NCBI GenBank assembly: GCA_963921795.1
Contig: OY997650.1
Span: 15,458,860 to 15,522,859 of the forward strand
Direction: 5' to 3'
Source: Nannobrachium achirus
Taxonomy: Eukaryota; Chordata; Actinopteri; Myctophiformes; Myctophidae
DNA: 64,000 nucleotides
Part shown: piece after piece, positions 7,873 to 61,619 of the stretch
How the letters are laid out: each line of letters opens with the position of its first letter
How positions within the stretch are numbered: the first letter of the stretch is position 1
Position numbers and translations under genes: made by a program
The notes under the pieces: model-generated
Told to the model about the DNA's origin: nothing
What the model saw: only the letters and a program-made list of their open reading frames with translations
Database searches by the model: none

Positions 7873-8326
7873 CAGGGGTCTTCATGTTTTCGGCCAAGGA
7901 CCCCTTAGTTGAGAGAGATGAAGCAGGGACCAGTCACCCTGACCCCACAACCTTTTCATAGATTCCATAGTTTCATAAAGTTGACGGCACAATCATCAGT
8001 GTATTTTGGATTCATGTCAATTTGTGTTTTCAGATATTTAATCACTTGAGTAGTCAACACTTAATAAACTTGACCTTTCACTCTGTACTACTTTCCCCCT
8101 CTACACCAAAGCTCTTTGCCGAAAATAGCCGATCTACAAGCTCACAATGCCTCGCAGTTGTGAGCTTGTAGATCTGCTATCTCAGAATATGGACGCTAGG
8201 GTTCAAGTGGTTAAAATAAAAAAGGGGAAAAAAGTTTCTATCACACAAAGATTTGGAGGACCCCCTGTAGTAACTCTGAGGACCCCTAGGGGTCCCTGGC
8301 CTTACCCCCTGTTGAAGACCCTTGGT
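7873..8326 (+). mobile_element. hAT-like MITE with internal hairpin (family A)
   Basis: Starts caggggtcttcatg and ends gttgaagacccttg, closely matching 47313-48379 over its whole length (ttttcggccaaggacccctt, the caatcatcagtgtattttgg block and the ggttcaagtggtta block). It contains the GATCTACAAGCTC hairpin at 8125-8180. No convincing target duplication was found at this copy. Confidence 0.7.
8125..8180. repeat. GATCTACAAGCTC hairpin module, copy 1
   Basis: Arms atagccgatctacaagctca and tgagcttgtagatctgctat enclose a short loop (caatgcctcgcagttg). It sits inside the family A hAT-like element. The arms differ from each other at one position (cc/gc). Confidence 0.8.
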
Positions 8327-9458
8327 ATCTGCACAATTCTACCACTGACTGGCCAGACAGGACCCCGACCCATTCCAGGAGGACTAGTGAGGCCTTATAA
8401 TATTATAATGTATTAGTAGAGTTAGAGTTAGAGTTCTATATATTAGCCTACTTATTTTAGTCATATATTAGGCCTATAGGAGGATCCTGCTGATTTTCAC
8501 CACCCATCCCAGATGAAATGCAATTCAAATCCATTTAAATTCAAAGAAGCTTTATTTGCATGATAAAACGGCTACTATTTCCAAAGCAAGTGTCAAAATA
8601 AAATAAAAACAGTTGAAAATGGGGAACATACAGTTGGAGGGGGTACATTAACATTGTGTAAACATAGCTATGTCGCATTGTCTCATCATATTATAGACTA
8701 TATACACTATACAGGGTATAGCTTTTGCAACAAATAGCCCCCTTAATACAGAAAAAAATGCTTTTAAAAGTAGCAGCTCTGTTCATACTGTATGTGCACT
8801 TGTGCAGTAGGTCCTTAGGGTGGTTGTGTTCCAGTCTCTAGCCTTCTTTTATCGCAACAGTTCACAAATCTTGCAGCACTACCTGATTAGAAATACACTA
8901 CCTGATAAGCAAGTGGTTCTCAATCGACCCCCAGGTGAACCCAGTTTCCTTGGGTGAACCTTTAGGGTCCCTGGACTCCCTGGACCCCACTTTAAGAGTT
9001 ATGGTTACAGTAGTCTTCAAAGGAAGAGGAACTTTTCGTTGACGATAGTAAGCCAGATTGTGGTTACAGTGACTGCAATTATGGCAGGCATTCTGTTGTG
9101 TAGTAGCATATCTCCTTAAAAAAACGAAATAGGCCCCTATCTGTGTAGGCTATAGAATTAGTCCTCATGCTCATACTTTCACAAAATAGCAAAGAAAACA
9201 ACAAAAATCTGGGACTTTAAAATCACTTAGAGAGATGGACCGTTACTCTTATACAGGTATGTACATTTCTAATATAATTGAACTGAATTGAAAACTAGAA
9301 CAATAGGCCTACATAGGTAGGGTTGACTTTATTCACATTCTATCATGGTCATGTTTTGTTGAAATAAGAAAGGACAACATAAAGATTCAAGAATATCCTA
9401 AACTATAGCAACTTACTATAGTCGAACTCTAATGTTTGTGTGAGTGTGAGACCTAGGT

Positions 9459-9487
9459 CTGGGGGGGGGGGGGGGGGGGGAGGGGGG
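9459..9487 (+). repeat. G homopolymer run
   Basis: About 22 consecutive G, one A, then six G. Such runs are prone to slippage and sequencing error, and the run could form a G-quadruplex. Confidence 0.9.
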
Positions 9488-10253
9488 CATGCCCGGACAG
9501 GGAGTCAGGGGCCAATAGGACCCTGCAGGTAGTCTTCTGGGGCCCCCGTTGTGAAACTACTATGGCAGACTGGAACTCTCTATGCATATAGTATAGTTTC
9601 ACACCCCTGGGTGGAATGTGTTGGTGGGCTGTTGTTTCAGTGAAACCACACGACACAGGGATGGGGGATGTTTCTTCTTACTTTAGAAAAAAGAAAGAAA
9701 GCGAAGGAAAAAGTACAAAATAGTCCTATATTTAATTATATCAATTAACTATTAAATGGTCAAGGATTTTAGTATCACATATAGGCCTATATGCCGCTGT
9801 GGAAACATTTGCAGGCAATGGGCTGATTGTTCTGCTGTATGGACAAAAATGAAATAAAAGTGACATAAAATCAAAAGACATATGACATCACACACTGATA
9901 AAGGTGCATTCTAAAAACAACACGAAAAAGGATACTGTCTGTTGTCTATTTCCTATTGAAATCATTGTGGTAGGTCAACTTAAGAGACCTCATAGCCTAC
10001 ATCATTCATTTGCATACCAACCAGCATAAATGGTCCTGCATAAATAATGCTAATTAATTAAATGATCCAACAGCCACAATGGGCGGCTTAAAGAGTTGTT
10101 AATGCCTGGCAAAGGCATTTCAAAGTCAAAGAGATAAGAATCATAAGATACATAGTGACAGAGCAGAGGCACGGTATGGTGGTTAAAGGAGTGATTCTCA
10201 AAGTGGGGACCAGTTTTACAACTGTACAGCTAGTACATCAGCTATTTGAAAAT

Positions 10254-10321
10254 AATAGGACTATCTACAAGCTCACAGCTGTCCCGATGCGAATGCCATG
10301 TGAGCTTGTAGACCAGCTATT
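10254..10321. repeat. GATCTACAAGCTC hairpin module, copy 2 (diverged)
   Basis: Left arm ctatctacaagctcac (10261-10276) and right arm gtgagcttgtagaccagcta face each other across a loop of about 23 nt. The host sequence is a hAT-like fragment unlike family A. Confidence 0.7.
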
Positions 10322-11080
10322 TTATTTTTTTCAAGTTTGAATATTCTTGAAACAACACAAATCTTGTATGGGGAGTTGGGGACCCCTTGCACAAATATGT
10401 TCAGATGGGGCCCATGGCCCAAATACATATTAATTTGAGGGTCCAACCCCTGAGTTGACATTAAAAAGTGTAGCCTATAAGCACCCCTGTGATAAAGGAC
10501 CCCAAAGCCATGCAGAGCCCCTAGAGGTCGACTCTCTTGAAAAGATTATCCTTTGGAGGGCGGCAGAGATCTTTCTAGCGAGCAAATAAGTAACCCTTCA
10601 TATCGCATTAAGGCCCATTATTTATTGAGCATTTGAGCCACGGACCACCATTAGATTGTTAATGAAAAAACAATAAAAATATTGTTAAAAAAAAAAAAAA
10701 GAAAGAAAAAAGACACAGAATTTGAATATTATGGTTAGATAAGATTTTGTCCACAACAATACATTCCATTCCATGCTTCATTCCATGCTTGTAGGAGAAC
10801 AGGCGAAACGTTCATCATTTTTTTCTCTAATTGTGTAGATTTCTTGTAAATGAAGTTTTTAAATAAAGTAGGCCTAAATCGCCTAATGCAGTTAGTTTAA
10901 CAATAATTTAACTCTTGAGACACGTTGAGCGTAATACAATGAAATGAAATGGACGTGTCCATTTGGTTACTTAAATATCTATAACTATAAGGGTCCATTT
11001 GGTTACCAACTCTCCAACATTTAGCTGGGGACCATCTGTAAACCCCTCAAGGACCGCTGGTGGTCCCCGGACCACGGGTT

Positions 11081-11393
11081 GGAAAACACTGCCCGTGATC
11101 ACACTGCAACGAATGACTGCGCATGTGCAAACTACATTCAATATGTCTGCGCCCTTGGACGCCTGCAACGGTGGGAAATGTCAACATTGATATCGCAAAC
11201 GTTTCATAGATAGAAAGTAGTTTGAATAATTTTGAATGAAAATTTTCAGGAAAACGTAGCGTTCTTCCTCTGCTATGTCTCATGTTGTCATGCTCGACAA
11301 TGTTGTGCCAATAAGGCTGCCAGATTGTTATCAAACCCGTGCGCGACAGAATAACTCGAGTTAAAGTCTGTTAGAAACGGTCTTTCAGACACA
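11081..11393 (+). promoter_or_regulatory. Probable mtrf1l promoter and 5' UTR
   Basis: This is the unique-looking sequence immediately upstream of the mtrf1l start. It contains gcgcatgtgc, an NRF-1-like motif often found in promoters of nuclear genes for mitochondrial proteins, near 11118. No TATA box is obvious. The assignment rests mainly on position. Confidence 0.35.
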
Positions 11394-14300
11394 ATGTTCC
11401 ACAGACGAGCCTTTCTCATGTTTCCCAGAGGGAAGAACATCGTTTTGGGTCTGTTGGTGCCTTGCCTTCCAAAATCACCAACTGTCATGTGCCAGAGGTT
11501 TGGACTTCATAAACTGTCCTCCACTTACAACCTCACCAGAACTCTGCATACTGCTATGCCATTGATGACAACAAAATTACTGACTGTTGATGAGATCTTT
11601 GCTCGAAGATCTCTGCAGGACCACTTGAAGAAGCTTGAGACTGACTATGGTGAATGCTTGAAACTCGTCAACAGCAACGTGACAGACCAGGGTGGTGAAG
11701 AGGAACTGAGGGCAAAGAGGTCTAAAGTATCGCGGCTGGCACCGCTCATCCAGTCCATCAAAGCCCTGGAAACCAAACAAAAAGAGATGGCAGAGACAGA
11801 GTCACTACTGAAAGGTTAGTAGCAAGCTGTTCTGATTAAAACAGGCCTGAGGAATACCAGTCACTTCGCCAAAAATCCAACTCGCCAAATCAACTTGCTA
11901 GGACACTTCGCAAATGAGCAGGGTTGTCAACATTGGACTGTCAGTCCAGGAGAATCCAGGAGATTTATTTTCTTAACAGATATATATTTTCCTGTGTTCT
12001 GTTGAATTTTGTGCATGTTTGATACTTTTATCAGGCTTGCTTTCCAAATGTAGGTGTACAAATTTGATGACTGAAGCAAAGTAAGACATCCTTAATAATG
12101 ACTTCTCATCTGGGGGTCCTCCCCCAGAAAATATTTAAAGTTTTACTATGTAACTTTTTTTATAAAACAAATCTTAAAATTGTCCTAACTGTTAAATCGC
12201 TAAAGTTTTAGAACACCCACTCCGTTATTTTCAGCTTCTGAAGCCTTCTCTTTATATGTTTTCTATGAGCCGTGAGGGGGGGAGAATTTCGCGCCATGAT
12301 GACGTAATCTGCATCATCTGTATACGTTGTGTATACGTTGCCCAATCACATCGCCGATCATGCACACATGGTACACTACCGGCCAATCACAGCTTATCTG
12401 CCCTGGTCTTGAAGTGGGGTCGCCATATTTGTAGTCGCCGTGTGTCTCTTTACTCAAAAAGTAATCTCGCCTACCAGGCAGGGTGAAGTCGTCCGTTTCT
12501 CCGGAATGCCTGAACGCCCAGGAACCAGGGACCCCTCTAAAGATAGCTCTCGGCGTTGTGGAGGCAGACGCGGGGGTGTGAAGGTACGAAAAACGGGCGA
12601 AAGACGCGAACGCGACCGCGGTTTGCTATATGGCTACTGACCACTAGTTGAGAATCTTACACAGTATAGCTTTAACATATAGATGTAATTGCCAATCATC
12701 TTGGCGAATCCAGGAGCATTGACAAATTTGACGAGTTGGATTTTTGGCGAAGTGACCGGTTACCAGCCTGAGGACTCAGTGATGAGGCCCAATCAGAGTT
12801 ATTGCGACCGTAGTTCGCATATTAGTATGTGAACGGTCACAGCTTGTCCATATGTGTGTGTATCTCTGTCTGTCTGTCACGCCTGACACCGTAGTTCTAT
12901 GGGTTTGTCGCTCTGACATCATGCTCTGGCTTCACTGTGATGTCACACTAACATAATCCCTTTTATGGAGTTCCCTGATGTCATCAATATTAAGCCTATA
13001 TCTAACAGGACTTCATATGCCCATATATGGAGGCCACATCGGCCACATATCACACTAACGGCTGGTTCTACAGACAGGGATCTCCATGTATGGGCATAAA
13101 AGGGTATGATGTCATAGACATCATAGGACTTTCACATAACGACTAACTGAGTAAGCATGTTTGGGCTCTCACAGCAGCATATCTCCATATACAGTACATG
13201 GATCTCCATATATGGGTACCAGGGGTCTCCATATATGGGTAACTGGTCCGATATACATCACTGGCCAGATGGCCAAGAATTGGCCTGACCTCGCCGCATG
13301 TCGCCCTGAGGCGTCTAGCTGCGTCTTATTACTATATATATTGCATTTAACTGATGTTTAACTGGCTGGCTAAGGGTCAACTTGAGGTTACAAACAAGCA
13401 CAGCACACCAACAGACAACTAAAATAATTACTGTAAAAATCTGGGAAACATTGCCTGGCACAACCTAGTGAAGTAGAACATACTGTATATTGGTTCGTCT
13501 GCTTGCAAATATCATATATGCACATGACAAGGCTCCTCTGGAGCCACTGGAGGGGAAATGAAATGTCAAAAATGTCTCGTCTCCTCATAGATGAAGATCC
13601 AGACCTGCGTGAGCTGGCAGAGCTGGAGAAAGAAGCCTGTCTCAATGACCTTCATGACATCAGACAGAGGGTACAAATAATAATATTTTAAGTTATTACC
13701 ATAGAAGATACCGAAATATAAACAAGGGGAGCTATGATTATAGTGTCAGCATTTCTTTGTAGTTATTCATTAAAAGTAACAGCAATAAAGTGTCACTTTA
13801 ACTAGCATTACAAAACATAGGCTATTATGTTCTCACTTGAACCCGTTAATGACTCAAGCAACCTGTTTCATCAATTAGATCCTGAGTCTGTTGATCCCTG
13901 AGGAGGAATTGGACCAGAGCGACCTTGTCCTTGAAGTCACAGCTGGGGTTGGTGGTCAGGAGGCAATGTTGTTCACAGCTGAGGTTAGAGTCTTTGTACT
14001 AATAACCAAATATGTGTATATGACATGTCAATCATTCATTCCTAATAAAATGCCATTGAAATATAGCATGCAACAAAGGAAAATGTACACTAAAAGCAGA
14101 ACATTTTTCCACTTCATCATCATAGAGCCATGTATTATTTCTGGTCTGGCATATAGGACTGTGTAATGTAATGCCTAATGCCCAAGTTGTGGCTTGCTTA
14201 AAATAGCAGAATCTCAAGCTAACGTTTAATAATGCTCTTATTTGTTCTCTGTGTGACTATTTCTTTGTTTGTTGTTTCTGACCTGCAGGTTTTTGATATG

Positions 14301-17300
14301 TACCAGGGCTTTGCTCAGCACCAGGGCTGGGCTTTTGATGTCCTTGAGTACATGACCAGTGAGATAGGTAAGTGATTTGCCCTGTAACAACATAAACATA
14401 ATTACCGTTTAACTGTCAGTCAGTCACTGAATGACTGTAATATTTGTGTTTTTAACTACCATCATGTACCCTGAAGGCAGCCACGTTTGTCCGAAACGTT
14501 GGCATTTAAATTTTATTCTAGGCTCTAACTTTGTTAATCCTTGAGTCTGGACTGGAGTGCGATGTTTCAATGTTATTAAACATGAAAGAGAGTAAAGGTA
14601 ACTCTCCAACACACCAACGCTGGTAAGTGTTGGAAAGCATTTGTTGCAGAAAATCTGCTCTTGAAATGGTGGTGGGTAAACTATCGCGTTGGGTCGCAAG
14701 TTGTAGAGAAGAGTTGAATAGCAGTGGGCTTGTTGTTGAAAAAGACTTAGAGCCATAGGCTATTTTTAGCACCATAGTAGCCGTCTGTTTTAGTCGGCTC
14801 TCAGGTCCATTCACACCTTCCAACTGTCTGATCTCCTGACTTAATTCCACTGCCAGTCTACTCTGTAGTAATCTGTTGTAGTCTGTTTGGTGGCGAGCGT
14901 GTGAATCAAAACACCGTTCTGGTTCCGCGGGCAGAGATTACAGAGGCACGTTGTCTCAGGCGACCTTGAGCCATGTGAGACACCATCGAGCGAGCGAGTC
15001 GCCGTGTCGAGCGTTGCGAAGGTCGCATGAGCCAACCCAGCCGACCCCGTTAGAAGTTTGAAACCAGGGGGCCTGAATAGTATGTTCGCCCCACCGACTT
15101 TCGGCACCTCCGCGTGGTCCAAGTGAACACATCAAAGCGCTCCCTTCCTCCGGTTCAACCAATCACAAGCTGCTTCCACGGGCAGGTCTACTGAACCCAA
15201 CCGGTGTTTTGATACACGCGTGGCAAGCTACCTTAAGGGCCCGTTCACATTGAGCCGATCCCGGGGCCGAGGATCCCCGACCAGATTTCGGGAGGACCCC
15301 CCGGGAAAATCGTTTGGTCGGCCCCGGAATCGGTCTTGGGCTTGAACAGTACCCCGACACGATCGGATTATGTTAATTAGCTTTTTTATGACCTCGGGAC
15401 TCGTCGGGAGCACTCACGATAATATCAAAAAAGCTTGATATTTTCGGGTCATCGGGTAGGAATCCTTTACAATTATTGTCGTCTGAATGAGCTCACGGGA
15501 TTGCATCAGATTATATGAAGCCAGCTCCTCCCTTTTTTAGGCTGCGCAGAGTGTAGGCTATTCTGTCACAGCCTACACTTTTATTATTATTATTAGCCTA
15601 CTTACTTTTTACTTTAGCCTACTCTCTCCCTTGTTGTAATCACTTGTTCAAAAACGTTATAGCCTATAGCGTTCTTTCTTCTTTTTTCTTCTTCTGCGCA
15701 GTCATTTGGCAACAAGGCAGTGTCTTTTTTTTTGCTGCGCAGATTTGGCTAGGGCAGTGCTGTTCTATCCGTGTATTAGCCTATAAGGGCTCTAAATTGA
15801 CCTTGTGCAACTTGACAGACAGACACCCTATATATAATATCTTATTCATATAATGTAATACTCAAAGTCAGAGACATTCCATTGCATTCCTTTTTTTTTT
15901 TACTTTTACGCGCGGGCTGCAGGCACATAATTGCGCCTCTCGTTCTGTCAGTTTGTTCATTGGTCCTCAAAGAGGACCGCCAGTCCTTGGGGAGTTCCAG
16001 GGGGTCCCCAGCTAAATGATATTGAGGAACCTAGGCCTGTCCCTATTCTATATGCTTGGATGTTGGTGGGACAGTAAAAAAAAAAAAAGCGAGAGGTTAA
16101 ACTTTTTTTTTTTCTGCGACTGCACGCCCACAACGGCGAGGTTTGGACATTCATAATTGCTATTAGCTGATTAAGCTCATGTCTGTTTAATGTCTGGCTG
16201 GTTGCCGTTAAAATGCTGGTTGATGTTTTTTAGGAGTGGACACTGGTCAATCAATGATATTGGAGATGCGACACTCTCAGCCGTGTCTTGCTGGATGCGC
16301 ATCACATCTCGCGTCTCGCTTGCCAAAAACATAACTGAATATATAATTATAATATCTATAAAGTGAGCAGCGGCCAGTGTGCGCACAGTAGCCTACCTAG
16401 AAGACTACCAACCTACCTTTGTTTTTATAATGTTTTGTCATGATGGCGCAGTTATCACTTGTGTGCAAAGGACGATGATACACGAAAGAAGAATGTAACA
16501 CCAACTTCTACCAATTAATCCATTGCTGTGACAGACAGACAGGGTGAGACAGCCAACGTGCTTCCTTGTAGACTACATAATCCACTGGGTCCAGCTTGGT
16601 TCAGATCAATCATATCAACATAACAGTAATAACACCAACCAAAGTCAGAATAAAAAGAGTCCACGAATAGGCCTGCACACTCGCTCATAATGTCCTCCTC
16701 CTCCTCCGGCTGCCAGCAGCGTCAGTTCTGCAAATGCTAAGGTATGGTAACATGGCTGTTGTCTTGCACGTGTGAGGCATGCATGCGATACACTAGTCAT
16801 GTTGCCAATACCTACTTTTTAGCAACAAGCACAAGCATGATGAATTCATTTTAAGAAGTACATTTTATTATTTTCTCCTGTAATCAAGGTACGTTATACC
16901 ATACCCATGTGCGCCTCTGTAGTCTAATTTGCGCAGTGATGGAAAAAGTATACTCCCATTCTTTACTTAAGTAAAAGTATCAATACTGCATTATTAGCTA
17001 CAAATATGGCACAGACAGAGAGAGAGAGAGAGAGAGAGACTCTTTGTTATAGACTATAGCGAATATATTTGTTTAATTTCGCTGTTTTAATATTTAATTA
17101 GGTAATAAAATGGATTTTGGAGCATAGCGAGTCAGAACACCGCAGCTGCAGGACTTCTGCGCTAATTGGGTCGTTGGCTCGTTGACTTTGCTGGCATGCG
17201 GTAGGCCTAATTGATTATTTTGGAGAAAGATTCCCTTTAGTATAAATAATAGTCCTTTTGGTTACCATTTGGTCTCCATCATTAAGCTGGGGATCACCTG

Positions 17301-20300: not shown

Positions 20301-22084
20301 CATGGCAGTGTTGGTATCATCTTGTGAGACAATACATAAATGTATTGATAGAAATGGGAAACTGGTAATGGCAGTTTCTCAAATAATTTGTGTGTGTAGG
20401 TGTGGTGTCAGAGTGTCAACAAGAGCGATCACAGATAAAGAACAAGGAAAAAGCCATGAAGATGCTGAGAGCCAAACTCTTTTCCATGAGACTGGAGGAG
20501 GAGACCAGCAAACGCTACAATGCACGCAAAGTACAGGTGGGATAAGATACAAACATACCACAAAGTACAGGTGCGATAACATACAAAACAGAGATATGTT
20601 TCAGAGCACCACTGGGATAAATCCAGGTATAATGCAAAGCAGTGGCAGCTGGAAGCTGGTAAATTAAATAATCACAGAGGAAGAGAGAGATATGATCAAA
20701 GTGCAAAATACATGCACATCCTAGACCGACTAGTTGGGGTACTGTATCAAACAGCTCACTAAGCAGAAAATATAAATCAAATCTGCTTTTAGTGACTTTT
20801 TGAACACTAGGCTTCATGAGACGTCTACAATAAAATCTTTGCAAACGAAAGCTACCTGGTGTGCAGATTTATGGGAGATGGGAGAGATAAACCTTATTTA
20901 TAAATAAGTCTGAAATTCAATTCAAGATTTATTTTACTATATACAGCATGTATTGATCCTATCTAACTGATTCATTTACGGAATGTCTGTCCGCCATCTG
21001 TCCGCATGCTGACATCACTGATACTAAACAGTGTAGCCACCATGGTAACAGCCACATGCTGAAACAATGCCTGACATCACTGACTGACATCACAGAACAC
21101 CATATATGGGCATTAACGGGTGAAACAGTCTGCATGCTGACATCACTGATATTAAACGTGTCGCCACCATGGTAACAGCCGCATACTGAAACGATGCCCA
21201 AATAATGTCTGTCTGACATGATGAAATAAGTGACCAAATTTGTAGATGACTGACATTACTGACTGACATCACTACAGTGCCCAAATGTGGAGATCATGAC
21301 ATCACAGACTGGACTTGACACGGAACACCATATATGGGCATAAAAGAGAGCCAGACAGAGATAAGAAATCTCCATATAATGTATGGGCATGAAAGGGACA
21401 TACAATACGAGCATTGCACAACTGGACGTCAATGGTGACTATTCTGCCCAACGGACACTGGTCTGGGTTCTCCAAAATTACTTCTGAGACCCCTCAGGGA
21501 CATTCAATCCCATACTGTGCATTCATATACTGTGCACACCCCCGGGCACAGGATTAGTTCATGATAAATTAACAAATGCACCTGTAACCTGACCAAAAAA
21601 AGACGAGACTTGAAGCAATAATATTGTCAGAGGAACTCTTCTGAGATCAGGACTACATTGGACACATGTAATCTGGGGGAAAATAAAGGCACCCAATTAA
21701 AATATCTTTCGTCAAAGATTTTATCACTTGAAAGCAGACCATTCCTAGTCCTATTTCTGTGGTATGCTACCAATTTAACCAAGTTAATTTTACCGTTCTC
21801 AATAGACTATAGTGTTTTAGGAATTCCAAAATACAATACAGTAACACAATTACTGCTTCTTTTACTTGTCCCTTCTCCAGATTGGTACCAAAGCCCGGTC
21901 TGAGAAGATACGTACCTACAACTTTGCCCAGGACCGGATCACTGATCACCGTCTGGGGAAAACTGTGCATAACATCAGGGAGTTCCTGATAGGAGAGGAG
22001 CTCCTGGAGGAAATGAACTCCTCCCTGGAGGATTTCTCCAATCAGGAGATGCTCATGGACCTCCTTGGAGAAAACGAGTATTGA
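11394..22084 (+). CDS. mtrf1l: Mitochondrial translational release factor 1-like
   Basis: A class I peptide release factor (mtRF1a type) that reads stop codons on mitoribosomes and triggers peptidyl-tRNA hydrolysis. Exons: 11394-11814, 13591-13670, 13879-13983, 14289-14367, 17674-17837, 20075-20192, 20400-20536, 21881-22084. All borders are GT-AG and the 1308 nt stay in frame (435 codons plus stop; human MTRF1L about 380). The N-terminus is Arg-rich and lacks acidic residues, as in a mitochondrial targeting sequence. Later features are a coiled helical segment, the [10 protein letters not shown] segment of domain 2, a PxT-like PKT at 260-262 and SGAGGQHVN with the catalytic GGQ at 304-306. 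The C-terminus contains [15 protein letters not shown] downstream ATG at 11487 (residue 32) is an alternative start. MTRF1L rather than MTRF1 is chosen because of the fbxo5 neighbour and the uninserted PKT loop. Confidence 0.95.
11854..12766. mobile_element. hAT-like element with exact 8-bp target duplication in mtrf1l intron 1
   Basis: Direct repeat cctgagga flanks the element at 11846-11853 and 12767-12774. Subterminal inverted repeats are clear: gtcacttcgccaaaaatcca on the left and tggatttttggcgaagtgac on the right. No transposase ORF is present. The interior carries a second element at 12139-12671. Confidence 0.75.
12139..12671. mobile_element. TTAA-flanked element nested in 11854-12766
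   Basis: Flanked by TTAA at 12135-12138 and 12672-12675. Ends are agttttactatgtaa on the left and ttacacagtatagct on the right, imperfect inverted repeats. The interior is GC-richer, with no recognisable protein. Confidence 0.5.
12790..13340. repeat. Repeat region with ccatatatgggcataaaagg motifs
   Basis: Within mtrf1l intron 1, short motifs such as tatatggg, gggcataaaaggg and tgatgtcat recur. They also occur at 21080-21400, 42090-42200 and 49270-49400, so this is an interspersed family with palindromic tgacatca-type pieces. The family is not identified. Confidence 0.45.
14368..17673. other. mtrf1l intron 4, repeat-rich
   Basis: The interval holds a GC-rich repeat at about 14880-15130 related to 35400-35570, another GC-rich block at 15240-15420, a hAT-like fragment near 15958-16070 (ggtcctcaaagaggacc), a (GA)n tract at about 17019-17038 and fragments of gttctcaaa-type elements. 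No exon-like conservation was recognised. Confidence 0.45.
14880..15130. repeat. GC-rich interspersed repeat (partner at 35400-35570)
   Basis: The strings gtctcaggcg, gagtcgccg and gcgcatgagcc or gtcgcatgagcc occur in the same order at both places. No ORF of note. The class is unknown; a diverged DNA transposon is likely. Confidence 0.45.
18800..19121. mobile_element. 322-bp TTAA fold-back MITE in mtrf1l intron 5
   Basis: TTAA occurs at 18796-18799 and 19122-19125. The ends aggagtagttcaccccca and tgggggtgaactactcct are exact inverted repeats, and homology between arms continues to the centre (ggggacccgtttagaaac). The whole element can fold into one hairpin. TTAA targets are typical of piggyBac-like transposases, so it is probably mobilised in trans. 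Confidence 0.85.
19122..19610. repeat. Repeat-like block beginning ttaactcactgaacgcc
   Basis: Contains a direct repeat of ccataaacgtctt (19138 and 19171). Its start resembles the ttaactcatt starts at 27607 and 31100, so these may be members of a TTAA-ended family. The right end is not defined. Confidence 0.35.
20975..21575. repeat. Complex repeat with internal minisatellite (member 1)
   Basis: Contains tandem pieces of the form gcatgctgacatcactgata and accatggtaacagcc, followed by a distinctive tail (gcacaactggacgtcaatgg ... gcacagga). The same pieces and tail occur in the same order at 37445-37985. It lies in mtrf1l intron 7. Confidence 0.65.
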
Positions 22085-22423: not shown

Positions 22424-22439
22424 ATTAAACCATAAGGGG

Positions 22440-24000
22440 ATCCTGAGATTATTTCACTTTCCTATGAAACAACATGGTGGTTGACTCAGGAGAGAAAACA
22501 TGCTGGTGTGTGTAGTGGTGTAACAAAGGTCATCAGAGTCCATATAGGCTGTTGTGCTAGTTGACAATAATGGGTATGCAGTTTTGACAGGCGTATTAAA
22601 CACTTTCATCCTTATTGTAGAAAAAGCAGATCTACAAGCTCATAACGGACTATAACATTTGACAAAGAATTTAAAATTGAGCTTATGTGGTTATTAAGTC
22701 CACCAGGTGGCATCAAACAGAGAAAGAATCTACATCTCAGAGTCCAATCATCTCACAAGTTGATCTGGACAGTAGATGTAAAAAAAAAAAAAGAAAGAAA
22801 AAAAAAAAAGTTAATACAATTCCTAGGTTGGCTGGGGTCCCATATATGACAATGACAACACACTCCCCTCTCGGAAGCCAACTATTTCAAGGGAATATAC
22901 ACATTTCTATTACATTATAAAAGATCAATTACATATAAGTAAATCAACACATTTGTTGATTTATTTTAGTTAGCTGAAATATTTATCTGCTGGGAAAAGT
23001 ATTTGGCTTGTACGATTGTGTGATGAAAATAAAATCACGCCCATCCCTTCACTTTACTAAACGATGTAGGTCTACTAACAACACTGTTTGAGGGCAAACC
23101 AGCCATGTTAATCCATTAACTGCTCGAATAGAGTTAATTAGCTCAAGATAATCTGTATAATAATTCTGCTCAGTGGCCTTGTGGTTAGAGTGTCCGTCCT
23201 GAGATTGGGAGGTCGGGGTGGTCATACCAAAGACTCTAAAAATTGGGCCGAATGCCTCCCTGCTTGGCACCTTGTATCAAAGGTTGGATTGGGGTAAGTC
23301 CCTGCAACTAGCGTCATGTCCAGAGGGTGTACTTGTACATCAAGCTGCCTCTCACACTACAGAAACAGGAGATAGGCTCCTGCCCAATGGGCCTCATGAC
23401 TCGGCAAGGTTTACTTAATCTGTGTCCACTTTGCAAGTTGGAGAGGTGGAAAGTCTGGTGGTGCGAGGCTAGTTGGAGAGTAGAGAGAATATGCTTTTGT
23501 TTACCTAAAATGTTCATGTAATATACAGATCTATCTAAAATAAATTGTGTAAAAGTTTCTTCTGTAATATAATTCAAAATGTGAAACTTTCATAATTTCT
23601 AGATACATTGCGCATGCGGTGAAATATTCAAAACCTTTTTTGTTTTCATAAAAAAGAAAAAGAAAAAAAAAAGAAATATATATATATATGGCATACAGGA
23701 TACAGCTCATGAATATTAAAAAATCATATCAAAATATTACAATATGCAAGACTACTCAAAACAAGGATTTATAATAGAAATGTATTATCGTGAAGTTTCC
23801 GCAGTCAGTGATGATTCGGGGTGCTATGGCATCGCATCGGCATGATTTTTTTTTCTTCACAATATTAAATATATTTTTAGATGGATCTGTATATATATTA
23901 TATTCAGGTGCAGGCTCAGCAACTTGTTCCAACAAGAGTCCATCCTTCAACTACATATCCCAAGCACCAGTAGTACCAAGGTTGACTAATTGAAAGTGGA
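22440..24000. other. Intergenic region between mtrf1l and desi2
   Basis: Holds a half-site of the hairpin module at 22624-22645, an A-rich run at 22780-22809, a tRNA-derived SINE at about 23165-23300 and an A/TA-rich tract near 23640-23690. No gene recognised. Confidence 0.5.
23165..23300 (+). mobile_element. tRNA-derived SINE fragment
   Basis: The segment ggttagagtgtccgtcctga followed by gaggtcggggtggtcatacc, ctccctgcttggcacctt and ggttggattgggg matches the layout of a widespread teleost tRNA-derived SINE known from memory. The B box is degenerate. Length and subfamily are not assigned. Confidence 0.6.
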
Positions 24001-24671: not shown

Positions 24672-54067
<29,396 letters not shown>

Positions 54068-54400: not shown

Positions 54401-55027
54401 AGTGTCCTAACTGTCCTTCGCTGGTTCATTTCATTGTGCATCTCTCTGTATAGCAGGGGCAGATGAATGCATAACATCTTTAGAATAAGACTGAGCATGG
54501 GTGTGCTGGTCTGTAGCAGGGGAGTGCAATCCTAAACGGGACAAAGAAGCTTACCTTTCACACCTGAAGCTGACAAAAGAGGGGATGAGGAGGTCGTGAT
54601 CAACATGGACCAACAATTCTGTGGTCATACTGTAGTAAACAACCGTATTTGCAGCAATTTATTTCTTGAGACGCATATGGTGAGCATGAATATGTCTGGC
54701 TCGGAGGGGGGGCTTTGTCTTTTCTCCAAGCTGTTTATACATGGAGGGAATATTGGAAAGCCTCCCCTAATCACAGAGCTGCTCCTACTTCCCAGAGCTT
54801 CTCCCACAGCTCTCAACTCAAGGGCCTCTCTTCCTCCTGCCCTCAATCTAAGGCTGTGTTTGACAAGGAGTTCCATAATCTACACAACTAACATGCAACT
54901 GACAAAACAAAACCATAAAGCCTGATTCATATTTTACGGCGGCATTACGTTGTCGCATCGCTCGCGTGTCGAAGGTATTTTTTTGATGCACGACACCGTT
55001 ATGCGATGGACCATAAATTAGGCTTAA

Positions 55028-55268
55028 AGGAGTAGTTCACCCAAAAGAATTACTTTTTTTACACATCCCATAAATACTTGAATTCATGGAGAGTTTTTAG
55101 TTTTTGTCGTCCTCCTGAGCCAATAATCAGGAGTCTCCTACCAGAAACTTAGCTGGTCATCAAATTATTGGCTCAGGAATGCGACAAAAACAAGGCCTCC
55201 GTTAATCCAAGGCTTCACTGGGTGTGTAATTGATAGACAATAAGTAAATGTTTGGGAGAAGTACTCCT
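55028..55268. mobile_element. 241-bp TTAA MITE (aggagtagttcaccc family)
   Basis: Between TTAA at 55024-55027 and 55269-55272. The left end aggagtagttcaccc matches 18800; the right end is gggagaagtactcct. Interior segments gagccaataat and ggaatgcgacaaaa match 3402-3669. Confidence 0.75.
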
Positions 55269-55446
55269 TTAAGACCCAGGGGATGCTCCCAACTGTTGCC
55301 ATGACAACTCAGTGGGATTCCTTAGTGAGACAGCTTGGTGCTATAAACTGAAACCGCTTACCTGAGACCCCAAGCCCCAAAAACCACGATTCACAGAACA
55401 TTAAGGCAACGTGAATGGGAAACGCAGCTCGGACAAGGGCAGAAGG

Positions 55447-55640
55447 TACGGTTTCCCAAACAGTGGTTCGGGACCCATTTGTGTTTTTTTTTATGGGTAA
55501 TTATAAGTAATGATTTATTTATTTTTCCAAAAAGTTAAAAACAAATCCATTAATTAGAGGGGGACACTTTCTTTTTTGTAGATATTGTCACTAGTTACGG
55601 TCCTGGGGAGACCACAAAGTTTGGGAAGCACTGCCTTCAC
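55447..55640. mobile_element. Small DNA-element fragment with tttcccaaac / gtttgggaag ends
   Basis: ggtttcccaaacagtggttc at the left and ccacaaagtttgggaagcac at the right are imperfect inverted repeats typical of hAT-like miniature elements. Confidence 0.45.
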
Positions 55641-56142
55641 GCAACAGTGTCCAAACTTTGTCTATTTGTTCCTGTCTGACCCAAGAACAGAGGTCGACCT
55701 AAATTCTGTGATACAAGCAGGCTGGTTTTTATTTACCGTGTATACAACACCTTGGGCTGTTGCGCTATTAAGAACTGTTGGTTCTTCCATGATCACATGG
55801 GTTGTTAACTTGAACACAGCTGGTTTATTTTTGTCAGTTTTTCAGTGGTTTGCTCGCAGCAGGTGTCCGTCTCCTCCAACGTGCCTCCTCTTTTTGAGGC
55901 GGTGCATTTTGACTATGCTGCCTGTAAGTTGAACGTGTCTCCGATTTTGCCTTGACGTGGCTACAGAGGAGACGGGCACCCTCTGATCAAACAATACAAC
56001 CAATGCACATAGCATTTCCAATAGTTAAGTCATTAAATAATTCTAGGTCTAAATGGGTTGGTCATGTGAAGCCAACTGTATTAGCTATCCTTCTTCATAC
56101 ATCTATAATCATACAGGTTTCACATGCTTCTATGCACATACT

Positions 56143-56145
<3 letters not shown>

Positions 56146-56220
<75 letters not shown>
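56146..56220 (+). repeat. (CA)n microsatellite
   Basis: About 75 bp of CA. Confidence 0.95.
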
Positions 56221-56222
<2 letters not shown>

Positions 56223-56574
56223 CGACATAATTGCATACACATAAAAGCAATGGCAATGTGAAGAACATGCACGCACAATCACACACAGTACTATACTCGG
56301 ATGCCTTCAGACAAATGGAACAGTATAAGAAGATGTGCATTCTTAAAGGAAGCACATTCACACCTTAAAACAGTGAAAACTGCCCCCCTGTCCCTCCTTA
56401 GGAGACCAGCCTCCTACCAGCTACCATAGTCCAGCCTGCGAAACATCAATGTTTTTTTGTTTGTTTGTTTTTTCATCTGTGTGACTTGTTTGGGACAGCA
56501 CATTTCTGTTATTATGGAGCAAAATCTATGCCAATAACAATACATAGCATTTTTATCCAGTGTGCTAAATATCC

Positions 56575-56580
56575 AATAAA
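56575..56580 (+). terminator. Candidate desi2 polyadenylation signal
   Basis: AATAAA about 2.5 kb after the stop. DESI2 transcripts in other vertebrates have long 3' UTRs, so this is plausible but unproven. Confidence 0.25.
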
Positions 56581-56832
56581 ACCATGTATTACGAAGTTAC
56601 CTTTTTTTTTTCTTTTTTTTTTTTATATAGAGGATTAAAGCTACAATCTGGGAGTTCTGCTCGTTGTCGTCTTCTCTTGTGTGGCAAGAGACTGGAGATT
56701 ATCTCCACCTGTTCAGAATGGCAGGTGTTCTTGCTCTGTTTGTGTGTTATGTTTGTGAGTGTGTAGCTAATCTCGCAAACTACTGCACCGTTGAGCATAA
56801 TTTATTTTGTACACATGGCAGTAGGGCAAGGA

Positions 56833-56997
<165 letters not shown>

Positions 56998-57259
56998 CGA
57001 ATTCATAATCTCTCACCAACTGTCCCTCCAGGCTATGGAGTGGAACTAGCCAATCAGGTGCAAGCTGTCTGTCCCAGGGAGCGTGCGTAATCCGATACCA
57101 CTGTTTTACAATTCATCAGAGAGAGAGACAAACACAGACCACGTGCACCGCACGACACTCAGAGATCATGGGCACCGATGACACACGCACAGTCGCACAC
57201 ATGGAGAGACTGGTACCTACGACGTGCAGTCGTCCACGACTAAAATGATTAGTCTAAAA

Positions 57260-57745
57260 CAGGGGTCTTCAACAGGGGGTCCGGGACCCATAGGGGGTCC
57301 TCAGACTTACTACAGGGGGGCCGCCAAAACCTTGTGTGATAGAATAATTATTTAAAATGAACAATAACTTGAACCCTCGCATCCCAATTCCGAGGAGAAC
57401 TTTAACCAAAAATAGCAGATCTACAAGCTTTCAACGCCTCGCAGTGCGAGGCGTTGAGAGCTTGTAGATCAGCTATTTTCGGCACATAGGTTTGGTGTAG
57501 AGGTAAAAAAAAAAAGAGCAGACCAAGTACATAGTGAAAGGTGAAGTTTACAAGATATAAATGATTTAAGTGGTTAAATGTCTGAAAATACACATTAAAA
57601 TGAATCCAACATAGACTGATGACAGTGCTGTCAAACAAGTCTATGAATCTATCTATGACATCGATGAAAATCTGCATCACACATATAGAGGGGGTCCCTG
57701 CTTCATCTCTCTCTGGCCCTAGCCTGAAAATGTTTAAGACCCCTG
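57260..57745 (-). mobile_element. Family A hAT-like MITE with exact 8-bp duplication
   Basis: Ends caggggtcttcaac and tttaagacccctg. The perfect direct repeat gtctaaaa lies at 57252-57259 and 57746-57753. The interior is the reverse complement of 47313-48379, including hairpin copy 8. Confidence 0.9.
57401..57485. repeat. GATCTACAAGCTC hairpin module, copy 8
   Basis: Arms aaaaatagcagatctacaag / cttgtagatcagctattttc. The inner stem reads aagctttcaacgcctcgc / gcgaggcgttgagagctt. Relative to copy 7, one base has changed in both arms (cacaacg to ctcaacg or ttcaacg). Confidence 0.85.
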
Positions 57746-57759
57746 GTCTAAAATGAATG

Positions 57760-59480
57760 AAACGCTCAAGAAACAGCCCAAACTGAGCACAAGGCCAAAG
57801 ACTCTTAAAGCCATTTGGAAATGCTTGATAAAATCCACTTTAAAATGCTGCAAAACATAGATATTTTGTGACAATTCATCCTAGAGTAATGATGCGTCAT
57901 GTGCGCACACACCAGACCCTGGGAGGGGGAGAGACGCACTTTGACGTTACCGCATCAGACAGCGTACCTCCTGGTAGCTGATCTTGCTGTGAACAAGAAC
58001 ATTTTGTAACATTGCTACATGCAATAATATCATCTCTGACATCTATTGCTGCTATGACAAACCATACACTCAAATACTCAAAGCAGCTATCATAGGCATC
58101 AACAGCTTTATGCTCCAATATTACGAAACCACATTATCAACACATACACCCGTGTCTAGGACAGATTCTAATCGATGTAGGCCAGGCCATGACCTACTGA
58201 GTCATTTTACCCACACAATGTTTACTGTAAGTGCATGCGTCCAACAAGGAGCATGCTTTTTTGGTTGACGCAATGCCACATGTCATCACTACCAGTGTGA
58301 CATTCTTACACGTCCCTGAGTAGGTGGTCAAAATGACGTGTTACTCATCTGCAGTTGGCTTCCACCTGTCCAGCAGCGCAAATGGCGTCAACTGCAGTGA
58401 TTACATTACACTTTAAAATAGCATATAGGATTGTGTAAATGTTGCGATATGACGGTAGGCTCACAGTAAGCTCCTAGCACTATCTCTAGAACCTGGAGAG
58501 GTGCGATCCAACAGAGTGGTCACAGAGAGCATGGAGAGTGTTTCCGACCATGGCAAATGTGACAGTGTGACAGCCCATTCCCACTTGGCCAGATAAACAG
58601 ATAAAAGATATCTGTCACAGATATTTTGTGTCTGTATCTTACCATCCACTTGAATGGAGACAGATATTTTGTATCTGTTTATCTGGTCCAGTGGGAATGG
58701 GCCTTTACTGTTATATGCTACCTTAAAGAAGGATCAAATGTTAATTAACTACAATAAATCCCTGATTTGAGCTTTAATACAATTTATTTTGTGCTGTTAA
58801 TCAGTAAATACATTTGGTGTCATGTAAAATGCGACCTTGTAAAATGGAACAAACTCCGTCATATGAAAGAAATCTGTGAGAAAAAGAACGTGTGCTGTCC
58901 CAACTTCAATGTGTGTGTATGAGAGAGAGGGAGAGTTTGAGAAAATGGCACACACCCTTTTTAAGTTAATCCTTTATTTTTTCTTTAACCTCATTGGCTT
59001 AACATCTTGCCACACTGCTATGGCTATACCTTTTCTCTTTTTTGTCCTGTTCTTTTTTTGTTGTTGACAAAACTAAGAAGGTGTTAAAATGATGTCCTTT
59101 TTTATCCCTTGTTGATCTGGATTCTGGCCTTTTCCTGTTTTGTATATATATAATATAAACTCAGGACTCCAAAATGCTTTGTTATATAAATAGTTTTTAT
59201 TGTCTTTTCCAGACACACACCCTTGTTTTGTTGTTTTCTTTGTTGCTCTCTTTCCTAATGCAGTAGTCCTTTTCCCAGAATGCACATTGGCAGTGCATTT
59301 TTGTACTCCTGACTTTGATAAAGGAAAGAAAAAAAGAAAGCATTTGTTTACAACTTGTATGTATGTTTATATGCGAGCATGTTTCTCTTTGTTTGAGATT
59401 TCTGTGTGTTTGCATGCGCGTGTGCGCATAGGCTTGTATTTTATGACAACCAAGAAGCTGCCATCTGGTCCAACCTCCCC
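57760..59480. other. Intergenic stretch between desi2 and the GPCR
   Basis: No coding or repeat feature recognised, apart from a short imperfect inverted repeat at about 58564-58704 (gacagcccattcccacttgg and ccagtgggaatgggcc) that could be another small fold-back element. Confidence 0.4.
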
Positions 59481-59486
59481 TCCCTA

Positions 59487-59489
<3 letters not shown>

Positions 59490-59577
<88 letters not shown>
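59490..59577 (+). repeat. (CA)n microsatellite
   Basis: About 88 bp of CA. Confidence 0.95.
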
Positions 59578-59581
<4 letters not shown>

Positions 59582-60077
59582 CAGTTATACATGCTGTACT
59601 GCACTCATACTGTCTAAAGAAATCCCATTCTTCCATCAACTTTATACTTACTTATGGATATTTGCAATGCACTCATCTTGGTTAAATAGTGGTAGCCTTG
59701 AGGCTGATATCACGCTTGTGCCTGGAATGCTACCAGTCTAATACCCTGATGTGGTAGGGAAAGTCCGGGAAACACCTCGACTAACCGGACGCCATTCGGG
59801 AGGAATGTTGGAATTACACACTGCGAACTTGAACTCTGTAAAAAGGCACATTTTGACACCGACGTCAAAGTAAAACTCAACATTTCTTATTTATTTTGCG
59901 GCACACCCACGAGGTGTGAAATCTGAAATGTCCATGATGAGCCATCTTCCGGATACTGGAAAAAGTTTTGACAGCCGCTAACTTTTCTGTTCTAAAACAA
60001 ATCCAGCTGTCTGGGAAAAAATAGTGAGTGACTGGTGGATTTCCTTCGCCACACACGTTACAGTACACATACAGTGT

Positions 60078-60078
<1 letters not shown>

Positions 60079-60147
<69 letters not shown>
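60079..60147 (+). repeat. (CA)n microsatellite
   Basis: About 69 bp of CA. Confidence 0.95.
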
Positions 60148-60151
<4 letters not shown>

Positions 60152-60584
60152 CATACTCTTACAGCTGATGTCAACCCCTCACCATGTGGTGGCTGTGCCT
60201 GATGATTTTTACTGTACCCGCTCACTGAGCTCTGCACTGTTTTCTTCTGCCGTTTGTCTGTCACCAAAAACAGACAGACATGAGGGAGGAGGGCCAGGTT
60301 TCCCAGAGTTCTCATGGCTTCTGGTTGTTCTGAACTTAAGGGGGAGTTTCAAAAGTCGATGGAATACGATGTAGTACAAATATAGTAATTGCTTATTTTT
60401 GCTAAAACAAAAATATTGCACAGATTTAGCTGTTTTACTTCTGGGAGAAAACAACAGGACACAGAATAAGAACATCCTGAGCTGTGATAGACTGGGAAAC
60501 CTTGGCCTTACATCCCTTCTTAACCCTGGAAAACTGACTTCAGATGTTTCAAAACCTTTTGTTAGAGCCTTCAGTGAAGCTGAA

Positions 60585-60880
60585 CAGATTTGTATCCTGT
60601 TTTAAAGTCATTAAAGAAAAAAATATATGGTTTACAACATTATTTTGTGTGTCATGGTTATTTATTTTATCCTAGTTTTAGTTTTAAACATGGGGAAAGG
60701 AAACCGGTTGAATGAATATGATCAAGCAGGATACAGATTTGTATCCTGTTTTAAAGTCATTAAAGAAAAATATATGGTTTACAACAATAGCTTGTGTCAT
60801 GGTTATTTATTTTATCCTAGTTTTTGTTTTTAACCTCTGGAAATGAAACTGGCAGAATGAATGAATATGCACAAGAAGAA
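60585..60880 (+). repeat. 148-bp tandem duplication
   Basis: acagatttgtatcctgtttt begins at 60585 and again at 60733, and homology runs through ggttatttattttatcctag. The first unit ends cleanly where the second begins. The end of the second copy is diverged. Confidence 0.8.
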
Positions 60881-61000
60881 GAAAATGTATGATTTATATC
60901 TTTTATGCTCACATAATTACACCACCAGTGTTGGGGAGACCAAAATTGCACACGTCTAACAGTTGGATTTTTTTAAAGATTTGTTTTTGGGCTTTTTGCC

Positions 61001-61162
61001 TTTTTATTGATAGGACAGTAGACTGACAGGAAATGGGGGAGAGACAGGGAGGGACATGTGGCAAATGTCGGCCGGATCGGGAATCGAACCGGCGACGCCG
61101 ACAGGCATTGATGCCGAAATGGCAATGCCTCTATGGTATGCGCCTAGGCCACCAGACGCCCC
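61001..61162 (-). mobile_element. tRNA-derived SINE (inverse)
   Basis: The minus strand reads ggtggcctaggcgcatacca, B box ggttcgattcccgatccgg, then gacatttgccacatgtccct and ctttcctgtcagtc-like tail sequence. Same general family as 45267-45432. Confidence 0.75.
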
Positions 61163-61230
61163 AGTTGGAATCTTTTATAGGTGATCAGGGGTGTCACACC
61201 AAATTCTGGGCCCTGGGTACTTTAACTATT

Positions 61231-61305
61231 GAAAAATAGCAGATATACAAGCTCACAGCGCAGCACTGAGTGCCACGCTGCAAGCTTGTAGATCTGCTAT
61301 TTTTG
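61231..61305. repeat. GATCTACAAGCTC hairpin module, copy 9
   Basis: Arms gaaaaatagcagatatacaa / gtagatctgctatttttgag; inner arms gctcacagcgcagcactgag / gtgccacgctgcaagc. The inner stem differs from copy 7 in both arms. Confidence 0.75.
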
Positions 61306-61557
61306 AGAAAATGTGTGCAAGTCTTTGAATATTTCAAATCCTTCAAAGGTTTTTTGAAAGACCTATGTTTCTTTGTCAGTGGTGCTCAAACCTTTTCATT
61401 TGAAGGACCCCCAAAATGATATGTATTTGGCCACAGACCCCCATCTCAAAATATTTATTTCCAGGAACCCCCCCTGAAACAAAATTTGAGTTAACAAATG
61501 TTCACTTAAAAAATACATATATTCAAAGATTTGCACACATTTTCACGACTTTTCAAG

Positions 61558-61619
61558 AATCTACAAGCTCGCAGCGCAGCAATCGGTGCCACACTGAGCT
61601 GTGTATGTCTGCTATTTTT
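61558..61619. repeat. GATCTACAAGCTC hairpin module, copy 10 (diverged)
   Basis: Left arm aatctacaagctcgcagcgc; right arm acactgagctgtgtatgtct then gctattttt. Pairing is much weakened. Confidence 0.6.

What the first reader, a model, noticed from the sequence alone, without database searches (positions are those of the whole stretch)
8125..61619. A short hairpin module recurs in unrelated contexts across the window
The inverted core GATCTACAAGCTC / GAGCTTGTAGATC, usually bordered by ATAGC and GCTAT, occurs at ten loci (8125, 10254, 24964, 29004, 35031, 42774, 48148, 57401, 61231, 61558). Half-sites are at 22624, 34375, 37395 and 41545. Four of the full copies are internal parts of family A hAT-like MITEs, but others lie in a tagggctgtcac MITE (42774), a caggggtgtcacac MITE (61231, 61558), a hAT-like fragment (10254) and apparently no such element (29004, 35031). 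Sharing among elements with different ends suggests the hairpin moves or is copied by itself, or was captured repeatedly. Sequence and positions are seen; independent mobility is inference. I know of no named element with this core but could not search.
Basis: partly seen in the sequence, partly recalled or inferred. Interest (0 to 1): 0.82.

Follow-up and report, generated by a model that had tools for sequence, protein, structure and literature searches.

The report
Shared hairpin core of fish MITEs
In what is apparently a fish genome, one small mirror-image DNA hairpin sits inside many mini-transposons with different ends, in hundreds of thousands of copies, and looks like a passenger core taken up by family after family rather than an element that jumps by itself.

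Summary
The window has 23 core hits (<=2 mismatches; 1.28 expected). The whole 1.66-Gb genome has 362,806 + 362,778 arms (<=1 mismatch) against 202/201 for the reversed control. The unit is an ~85-bp palindrome whose outer and inner parts differ between families yet tend to stay paired.

Both copies said to lie in no element lie in hAT-like MITEs: 35031 in a complete one, 29004 in a decayed one. I found the hairpin in eight hAT-like TIR types, in a 179-bp TA-flanked MITE (14 of 14 copies read) and in a module with a probable 4-bp duplication, so it appears to cross transposon classes.

Independent mobility is not supported: hairpins sort by host family (weak branch support), and of nine hairpin-less family copies eight keep clear arm residues, one is too diverged. 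What is seen to insert precisely is a whole MITE.

Best reading: a palindromic core captured by several MITE families and amplified by their transposases. Coral CMITEs are the nearest precedent. The genome-wide empty-site probe did not complete; no sister species was available.

The parts
8125..8180 (.). hairpin (family A element about 7873-8324)
   Evidence: no credible TSD found for this copy
10246..10334 (.). hairpin with variant arms TATC/GACC in a decayed hAT-like element E (about 10192-10490, ends by eye)
   Evidence: the TSD/TIR scan found none
24964..25031 (.). hairpin (family A element about 24821-25240)
   Evidence: TSD not found
28981..29317 (.). hairpin with a ~207-nt repeat inserted in its loop, in a decayed hAT-like MITE similar to J (28956-29347)
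   Evidence: no TSD
34851..35208 (.). complete hAT-like MITE D, TIR TAGGGATGGGA[GC]GA, TSD AAGTGGAC/AAGTGGAT, holding hairpin 35030-35100
42576..43333 (.). hAT-like element C, TIR TAGGGCTGTCAC[GA]A, TSD 7 of 8, hairpin about 42775-42844; a 369-bp copy with TSD TAGATATG is at L032:1131-1499
48148..48235 (.). nearly perfect hairpin in a family A element (right end 48379); DNA fold z = -15.1
   Evidence: TSD not found
48031..48271 (.). inner part of this family A element, with inverted ends TTAACCACTTGAACA / GGTTCAAGTGGTTAA around the hairpin
57260..57745 (.). complete hAT-like MITE A, TIR CAGGGGTCTTCAAC, TSD GTCTAAAA; hairpin 57406-57482
61186..61709 (.). complete hAT-like MITE B, TIR CAGGGGTGTCACA, TSD TAGGTGAT, with two hairpins (61232-61304, and a decayed one at about 61558-61619)
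22629..22641 (+). single arm (half-site), exact core
37398..37410 (+). single arm (half-site), one mismatch; GGCTATTTTC of the far arm lies next to it
34295..34413 (.). inner part of a decayed family A element, hairpin reduced to one arm
41471..41611 (.). inner part of a decayed family A element, hairpin reduced to part of one arm
62593..62838 (-). family G copy whose hairpin has collapsed to GTGAAAATAGC/ATTTTCAC (centre deletion, not an empty site)

Best explanation
[quoted passage not shown] Shown: it is an ~85-bp palindrome with a conserved middle (TACAAGCT...CA) and family-specific outer and inner parts that tend to pair; it lies inside elements with eight hAT-like TIR types and in a TA-flanked MITE, with a further module of probable 4-bp duplication; hairpin versions go with host family; hairpin-bearing MITEs nest in one another, and one such nest (K inside B) occurs in about ten places. 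Inferred: each family acquired the hairpin once or a few times, by such nesting or as filler during gap repair after excision. After that it was amplified as a passenger by whatever transposase recognises that family's ends. Mirror symmetry is renewed by template switching between arms, by selection, or both. Inferred and least sure: the palindrome persists because it helps the carrier multiply, for example by bringing the two ends together or by provoking template switching at replication forks.
For: Genome-wide abundance far above control and in stretches chosen by position. hAT-like hosts with TIR and an 8-bp TSD (7 or 8 of 8) but different ends: A, B, C, D in the window; I, J, more B, and the hosts of module H in L013 and L026; C again with TSD TAGATATG; G (one copy, L025) and M (TSD 6 of 8) read by eye. 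K: 14 of 14 copies read are TA|TCCACGAGTTTCC...GGAAACTTGTGGA|TA, 179 bp; 12 of these were picked from the 42 rows as matches ending at K's ends, L051 and L054 share flanks, and two diverged relatives (L023, L025) are not counted. Of the 42 rows, 21 begin at query 42-48 and end at 230-232, the ends of K, while 10 on several contigs cover the whole query, that is K with its B-element flanks, at 90-100%. Module H: ends CGTC/GACG with AAAT (L013 and L019a, one insertion) or ATAT (L010b, L026b) on both sides; not so in L010a or L026a. With the hairpin masked, 16 representative sequences (13 types) gave at E<=0.01 only A-M, A2-G (25 terminal nt), F-J and same-family or same-element matches. Hairpins group by host with 11 changes, the least possible for 12 groups; 0 of 200 shuffles as low. 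Pairing is kept through double changes: 85.4% of cells against 77.8% shuffled, covariation 0.260 against 0.129, 0 of 500. Two complete full-length hAT elements (L041, L042) hold no hairpin between their ends.
Against: No capture by a hairpin-less family was caught, and no hairpin-less ancestor of any family was found. The tree has only 3 well-supported branches of 31, an unsettled bootstrap, seven groups not listed apart (one row each), group A needs 2 changes, and label B was partly given by hairpin type, so its grouping is partly circular. Families are not all independent: A and M share a larger inner stretch, A and D some flank, and the right flanks of B and E are alike (96 nt at 69%). The autonomous hAT elements read have other TIRs than the hairpin families, so they do not show that the true parents lack it. 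The class of K and H rests on flanking duplications alone; no transposase was linked. A single arm in a 45-bp minisatellite unit (L031) is not explained by a MITE-only account.
Confidence: 0.58

Rival explanations
1. One ancestral hAT MITE carried the hairpin; its TIRs and flanks diverged beyond recognition while the hairpin was kept by constraint.
For: Most delimited hosts are hAT-like, with 8-bp TSDs and related-looking ends; some flanks are alike between types (A-M, A-D, B-E); hairpins sort by family.
Against: K is TA-flanked and H has a probable 4-bp TSD, unlike hAT. With the hairpin masked, representative hosts show little cross-family similarity.
Confidence: 0.2
2. The hairpin is a mobile element in its own right (a eukaryotic analogue of REPINs or of mitochondrial hairpin elements).
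For: Very high copy number, many contexts, single and tandem arms outside clear elements, some hairpins not assigned to any element, and one arm-variant pair shared by a family A copy and element E (TATC/GACC at 24980 and 10262).
Against: No clean empty site among nine hairpin-less family copies: eight keep arm residues, one (L028:6633) is too diverged to tell. Hairpin types go with host families. By eye only, not tested: in most families (not B) the letters at the hairpin edge are mirror-symmetric and I saw no direct duplication there. The unit with precise ends is the whole MITE.
Confidence: 0.08
3. The hairpin is a selected functional site (protein-binding palindrome, or a source of small RNA) that families retain because it raises their transposition or shields them.
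For: Symmetric conserved core with invariant columns and compensated changes; strong folding (z -15.1, -14.4, -14.3; K only -3.4).
Against: No Rfam family at gathering score in the window; no binding factor known; symmetry can also arise from template-switch repair without selection; loss of one arm or of the centre is common.
Confidence: 0.14

Closest known systems
CMITE families of Acropora corals (PMC2872659; abstract and sections 10 and 14 read)
   Same: MITE families with different TIRs share a highly conserved internal region of unknown origin; tandem arrays occur; a new element arose by insertion of a CMITE.
   Different: All CMITEs are TTAA-flanked and piggyBac-like, about 1,600 copies estimated in A. 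millepora; here the shared core is a palindrome, is in hundreds of thousands of copies, and lies in 8-bp-TSD and TA-flanked elements.
V domain in the MER6 MITE (PMC6887750; abstract and section 8 read)
   Same: A conserved module known from one element class (SINEs) is carried inside a MITE.
   Different: One domain in one MITE lineage; not a hairpin shared by many MITE families at once.
REPINs of bacteria (PMC3116915; abstract read)
   Same: Inverted pairs of a short sequence, predicted to form hairpins, at high copy number.
   Different: REPINs are themselves the replicative unit and are linked to RAYT transposases; here the moving unit seen is the host MITE.
Repetitive hairpin-forming elements of sponge mitochondria (PMC2800124; abstract read)
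   Same: Short hairpin repeats dispersed through a genome.
   Different: Organelle DNA, intergenic.
Angel and other fold-back MITEs of teleosts (recalled, not read)
   Same: Fish MITEs with strong hairpin potential.
   Different: As recalled, a single family; no core shared among families.

Membership tests
hAT-type MITE (hosts A, B, C, D, I, J) | 8-bp target site duplication | tested here: met
   8 of 8 for A 57260-57745 and B 61186-61709, 7 of 8 for D and C; I, J, L013 and L026 hosts; C at L032 with TAGATATG. No credible one for the copies at 8131, 10262, 24980, 29031, 48165
hAT-type MITE (hosts A, B, C, D, I, J) | short TIR, here beginning CAG or TAG | tested here: met
   13 of 14 TIR positions match for A, B, C, D; 10-14 of 14 for the others
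hAT-type MITE (hosts A, B, C, D, I, J) | mobilised by a hAT transposase with the same ends | tested here: inconclusive
   hAT transposase domains are abundant (150 scored of 1,653 candidates) but the two full-length elements delimited have other TIRs
TA-target (Tc1/mariner-type) MITE (host K) | TA on both sides, short TIR, uniform length | tested here: met
   14 of 14 copies read, 179 bp
TA-target (Tc1/mariner-type) MITE (host K) | a Tc1/mariner transposase acts on it | not tested
   no transposase with these ends was sought
CMITE-like MITEs with a shared internal region | internal region more alike between families than the TIRs | tested here: met
CMITE-like MITEs with a shared internal region | TTAA duplication and CC[CT]T ends | tested here: not met
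   8-bp and TA flanks; only the inner part of family A has TTAA at its ends, followed by CCACTTG
self-mobile hairpin (REPIN-like) | hairpin-only presence/absence | tested here: inconclusive
   none among nine hairpin-less family copies in the DNA held; the genome-wide probe did not complete
known structured RNA | match to an Rfam family | tested here: not met
   0 matches at gathering score in the window

The most novel reading that the evidence does not exclude
A single palindromic core has become a common part of MITEs served by unrelated transposases, spreading between superfamilies because it raises the multiplication of any MITE that captures it: a shared amplification cassette that helped to fill this genome.
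Probability: 0.25. Interest if true: 0.85.

Novelty: new variant of a known kind. Interest (0 to 1): 0.62.

Why it matters
MITEs are usually thought to succeed because of their ends. A core that is more alike between families than the ends, appears to cross transposon classes and is present in hundreds of thousands of copies points to the middle of the element as a possible driver of amplification. It gives a natural experiment on how MITEs acquire their filler, and a direct assay: same ends, core present or scrambled. It would also affect repeat annotation, since one core links families that classification by ends keeps apart.

Tried and rejected
Searches for the hairpin outside this genome: none in viral contigs (two patterns) or bacterial and archaeal contigs (one pattern); these collections are not expected to hold fish DNA, so this says little. 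Full text of the open library for six stretches of the hairpin: one paper, on Theileria parva, holding one 13-mer once, probably chance (listing only). Literature searches for hairpin or palindromic MITEs and shared internal regions; the coral CMITE paper was the closest. The species was not established; exons that look like desi2 are my reading from memory, from no call. An anchovy is a guess from 24 large contigs and 1.66 Gb beside PMC13403563 (start of abstract and eight passages), in which DNA transposons are 16% of the genome with hAT, CACTA and TcMar most abundant; 'palindrom' and 'miniature' do not occur in its main text.

Rejected: chance and known structured RNA in the window. Candidate empty sites turned out to be deletions that leave arm residues: window 62593-62838, L028:7800 and L028:8961 (family G; the last two 98% alike), L023:4181, L009:5966, window 34375 and window 41545 (family A), L019:9814 (family H); L028:6633 (family G) is too diverged to tell. 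Two module H copies (L010a, L010b) have also lost one arm. Hairpins in L033 lie outside the stretch shared with its hAT relatives. Not assigned to an element: L024:6860, L020:302, L021:4568; for type L (L015:7189, L033:2570) and element E no firm ends were found.

Rows dropped or chosen before counts: one search used 32 of the 34 loop-27 hairpins (L002 and L004, near-copies, left out); the 34 are those of the 67 pairings with the modal loop length, so shortened hairpins and K copies with a 28-nt loop are not in it. In one search hosts were one or two chosen representatives per type. In one search twelve K copies were chosen. The control (40 random centres) had an extra filter on end letters that the listed loci did not have.
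Full report
OBSERVATION. The pattern GATCTACAAGCTC occurs 23 times in the window at up to two mismatches, against 1.28 expected and at most 5 in 100 shuffles. Nine of the ten listed loci are hairpins with both arms; the tenth, 61558, has a decayed right arm. A further half-site lies at 4301. In the whole genome (G000, 1,658,514,493 bases, 564 contigs) the 13-mer occurs 362,806 times on one strand and 362,778 on the other at up to one mismatch; the same pattern read backwards gives 202 and 201. In the window plus 20 stretches of 10 kb taken at base 10,000,001 of contigs C1-C20 (256,720 non-N bases) there are 58 hairpins and 37 single arms by my criterion, with a modal loop of 27 between the 13-mers. 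Those 58 include one false pairing at window 29205 and four overlapping pairings in a tandem tract of L025. If there are about 3.6 x 10^5 units of about 85 bp, they make up roughly 2% of the genome (arithmetic, not measured).

ANATOMY. Thirty-four hairpins with the modal loop line up over 85 bases. The conserved part is AAAATAGC-N-GATCTACAAGCTC-ACA, with TACAAGCT the firmest. The outer part (about 7-15 nt beyond the core) and the inner part next to the loop differ between host families yet tend to pair within a hairpin: mean mirror identity within against between hairpins is 0.64/0.45 outside, 0.88/0.85 in the middle and 0.76/0.61 inside. On 32 of them (two near-copies left out), 85.4% of 1312 cells pair against 77.8% in shuffles, 25 of 41 pairs show changes on both sides, and the covariation score is 0.260 against 0.129 shuffled and at most 0.093 when slid. 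Relatedness inflates such counts, and palindromes can be re-perfected by template switching, so this shows kept symmetry, not necessarily selection. Four examples folded as single-stranded DNA give z-scores of -15.1, -3.4 (K), -14.4 and -14.3.

HOSTS IN THE WINDOW. A scan for TIR plus 8-bp duplication delimits four hosts: A 57260-57745 (CAGGGGTCTTCAAC, TSD GTCTAAAA), B 61186-61709 (CAGGGGTGTCACA, TSD TAGGTGAT; two hairpins), C 42576-43333 (TAGGGCTGTCAC, TSD 7 of 8) and D 34851-35208 (TAGGGATGGGA, TSD 7 of 8). At 40 random places the scan, with an added filter on end letters, gave two hits, one of them element A again. The hairpin at 29004 lies in a decayed element that aligns with family J (CAGGGACGTGCAGA) at its left end and near its right end; its wide loop is an insert, a repeat with copies 97-98% alike over 156-165 nt in L010 and L018. 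No credible TSD was found for 8131, 10262, 24980, 29031 or 48165.

HOSTS ELSEWHERE. I (CAGGGGTGGGCAAC, 510-511 bp, TSD ACTTAAAT, four neighbouring copies), J (CAGGGACGTGCAGA, TSD TCGACAAC in L018), further B copies, and two hAT-like hosts of module H (CAGGGACGTGCTGG in L013; CAGGGGTTCCCAAA in L026) were delimited. G (CAGTGGTTCTCAACC, bordered by CGTTTAGAT on both sides in one copy, L025, which is itself inserted in another hairpin) and M (CAGGGGTTTTCAAA, TSD 6 of 8) were read by eye. A copy of C in L032 is 369 bp with TSD TAGATATG. The same scan of the window and L001-L028 also shows hAT-like elements without a hairpin, such as window 50043-50591, L020:810-1311, L020:9129-9673, L023:1088-1446 and L026:9107-9888; some others without one are A, G or H derivatives that have lost it. 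With hairpins masked, 16 representative host sequences share little across families: A-M, a 25-nt terminal match A2-G, F-J, and copies or hosts of the same element. Searches without masking or nearer the hairpin add a partial A-D likeness and a B-E likeness in the right flank (96 nt at 69%).

NOT ONLY hAT. K is a 179-bp MITE, TCCACGAGTTTCC...GGAAACTTGTGGA. All 14 copies read have TA on both sides; 13 are nearly identical and L010 is somewhat diverged; L051 and L054 share flanks. Twelve of the 14 were chosen from the 42 rows (40 of 2,077 candidates scored), of which 21 begin at query 42-48 and end at 230-232, the ends of K. Ten other rows cover the whole query, K plus the B-element sequence around it, at 90-100% identity on several contigs: the nest of K in B seems to have multiplied as one unit (or by duplication of segments), which is how a hairpin-bearing MITE could become the core of another. 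In L047, K interrupts a B element at another point; the uninterrupted sequence stands at window 61620. Module H has ends CGTC/GACG and AAAT or ATAT on both sides in three insertions (L013/L019a, L010b, L026b), but not in L010a or L026a. The inner part of family A carries inverted ends TTAACCACTTGAACC around the hairpin; I could not show that it moves alone.

DOES THE HAIRPIN MOVE ALONE? Nine hairpin-less copies of families A, G and H were aligned with their relatives. Eight keep pieces of the arms, for example GTGAAAATAGC|ATTTTCAC at window 62593-62838, and so are deletions, as expected for long palindromes; L028:6633 is too diverged to tell. A tree of 34 hairpins sorts by host family with 11 changes, the least possible for 12 groups, and 0 of 200 shuffles as low; but only 3 of 31 inner branches are well supported, seven groups have one row, family A needs two changes, and the B label was partly assigned by hairpin type. 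One hint of exchange remains: the family A copy at 24980 and element E at 10262 share the arm variants TATC and GACC. A genome-wide probe with joined K flanks did not complete.

AUTONOMOUS ELEMENTS. hAT transposase domains are abundant (150 scored of 1,653 candidates). Two full-length hAT elements with perfect TSDs (L041:381-3828, L042:154-3589) contain no hairpin between their ends; L034-L040, L043 and L044 show none around their transposase, but their ends were not found; hairpins near the transposase of L033 lie outside the stretch shared with its relatives. The TIRs of L041 and L042 differ from those of the hairpin families, so the true parents remain unseen.

READING. The account that fits best is a palindromic internal core carried by many MITE families of at least two, probably three, target-duplication classes and amplified with its hosts. 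Nesting of one hairpin-bearing MITE in another is seen directly (K in B, H in hAT-like hosts, G in a hairpin). Capture by nesting or by gap-repair filler is inferred. Coral CMITEs are the nearest precedent (PMC2872659: different TIRs, conserved 75-base internal region, tandem arrays, all TTAA-flanked). I found no report of a core shared across classes, in a library that lacks most subscription journals.

Noticed in passing
L045-L056, L016:7511-7693, L010 near 8195: K is a 179-bp TA-flanked MITE with nearly identical copies at many places, so it probably moved very recently.
   Followed up: partly
rows 1-10, e.g. C6:16381787-16382043 and C17:16543007-16543266: K inside a B element, with the same flanks, at ten places at 90-100% identity: a nested pair that seems to have multiplied as one unit.
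   Followed up: no
L031 (C1:3707500-3708800): A 45-bp minisatellite whose unit contains one hairpin arm (GCAGATCTACAAGCTCACA) and otherwise different sequence.
   Followed up: no
L029, L025:2640-2800: Tandem amplification of half hairpins (units of 37-43 bp) and of back-to-back arms, suggesting slippage at the palindrome.
   Followed up: no
window 120-633 and 6398-6806: A duplicated block about 6.2 kb apart that includes a 27-bp tandem repeat.
   Followed up: no
window 50043-50591: Complete hAT-like element (TIR TAGGGCTGCACGAT, TSD ATGAAGGC) without the hairpin.
   Followed up: partly
window 29044-29250: Repeat inserted in a hairpin loop, with relatives at window 2148-2627, L010:3155-3319 and L018:9813-9968.
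   Followed up: partly
window 21004-21203 and 37497-37766: Repeated block GCATGCTGACATCA...CCATGGTAACAGCC of unknown nature.
   Followed up: no
window 24980 and 10262: Two hairpins in different hosts share the same pair of arm variants, a possible trace of exchange.
   Followed up: no
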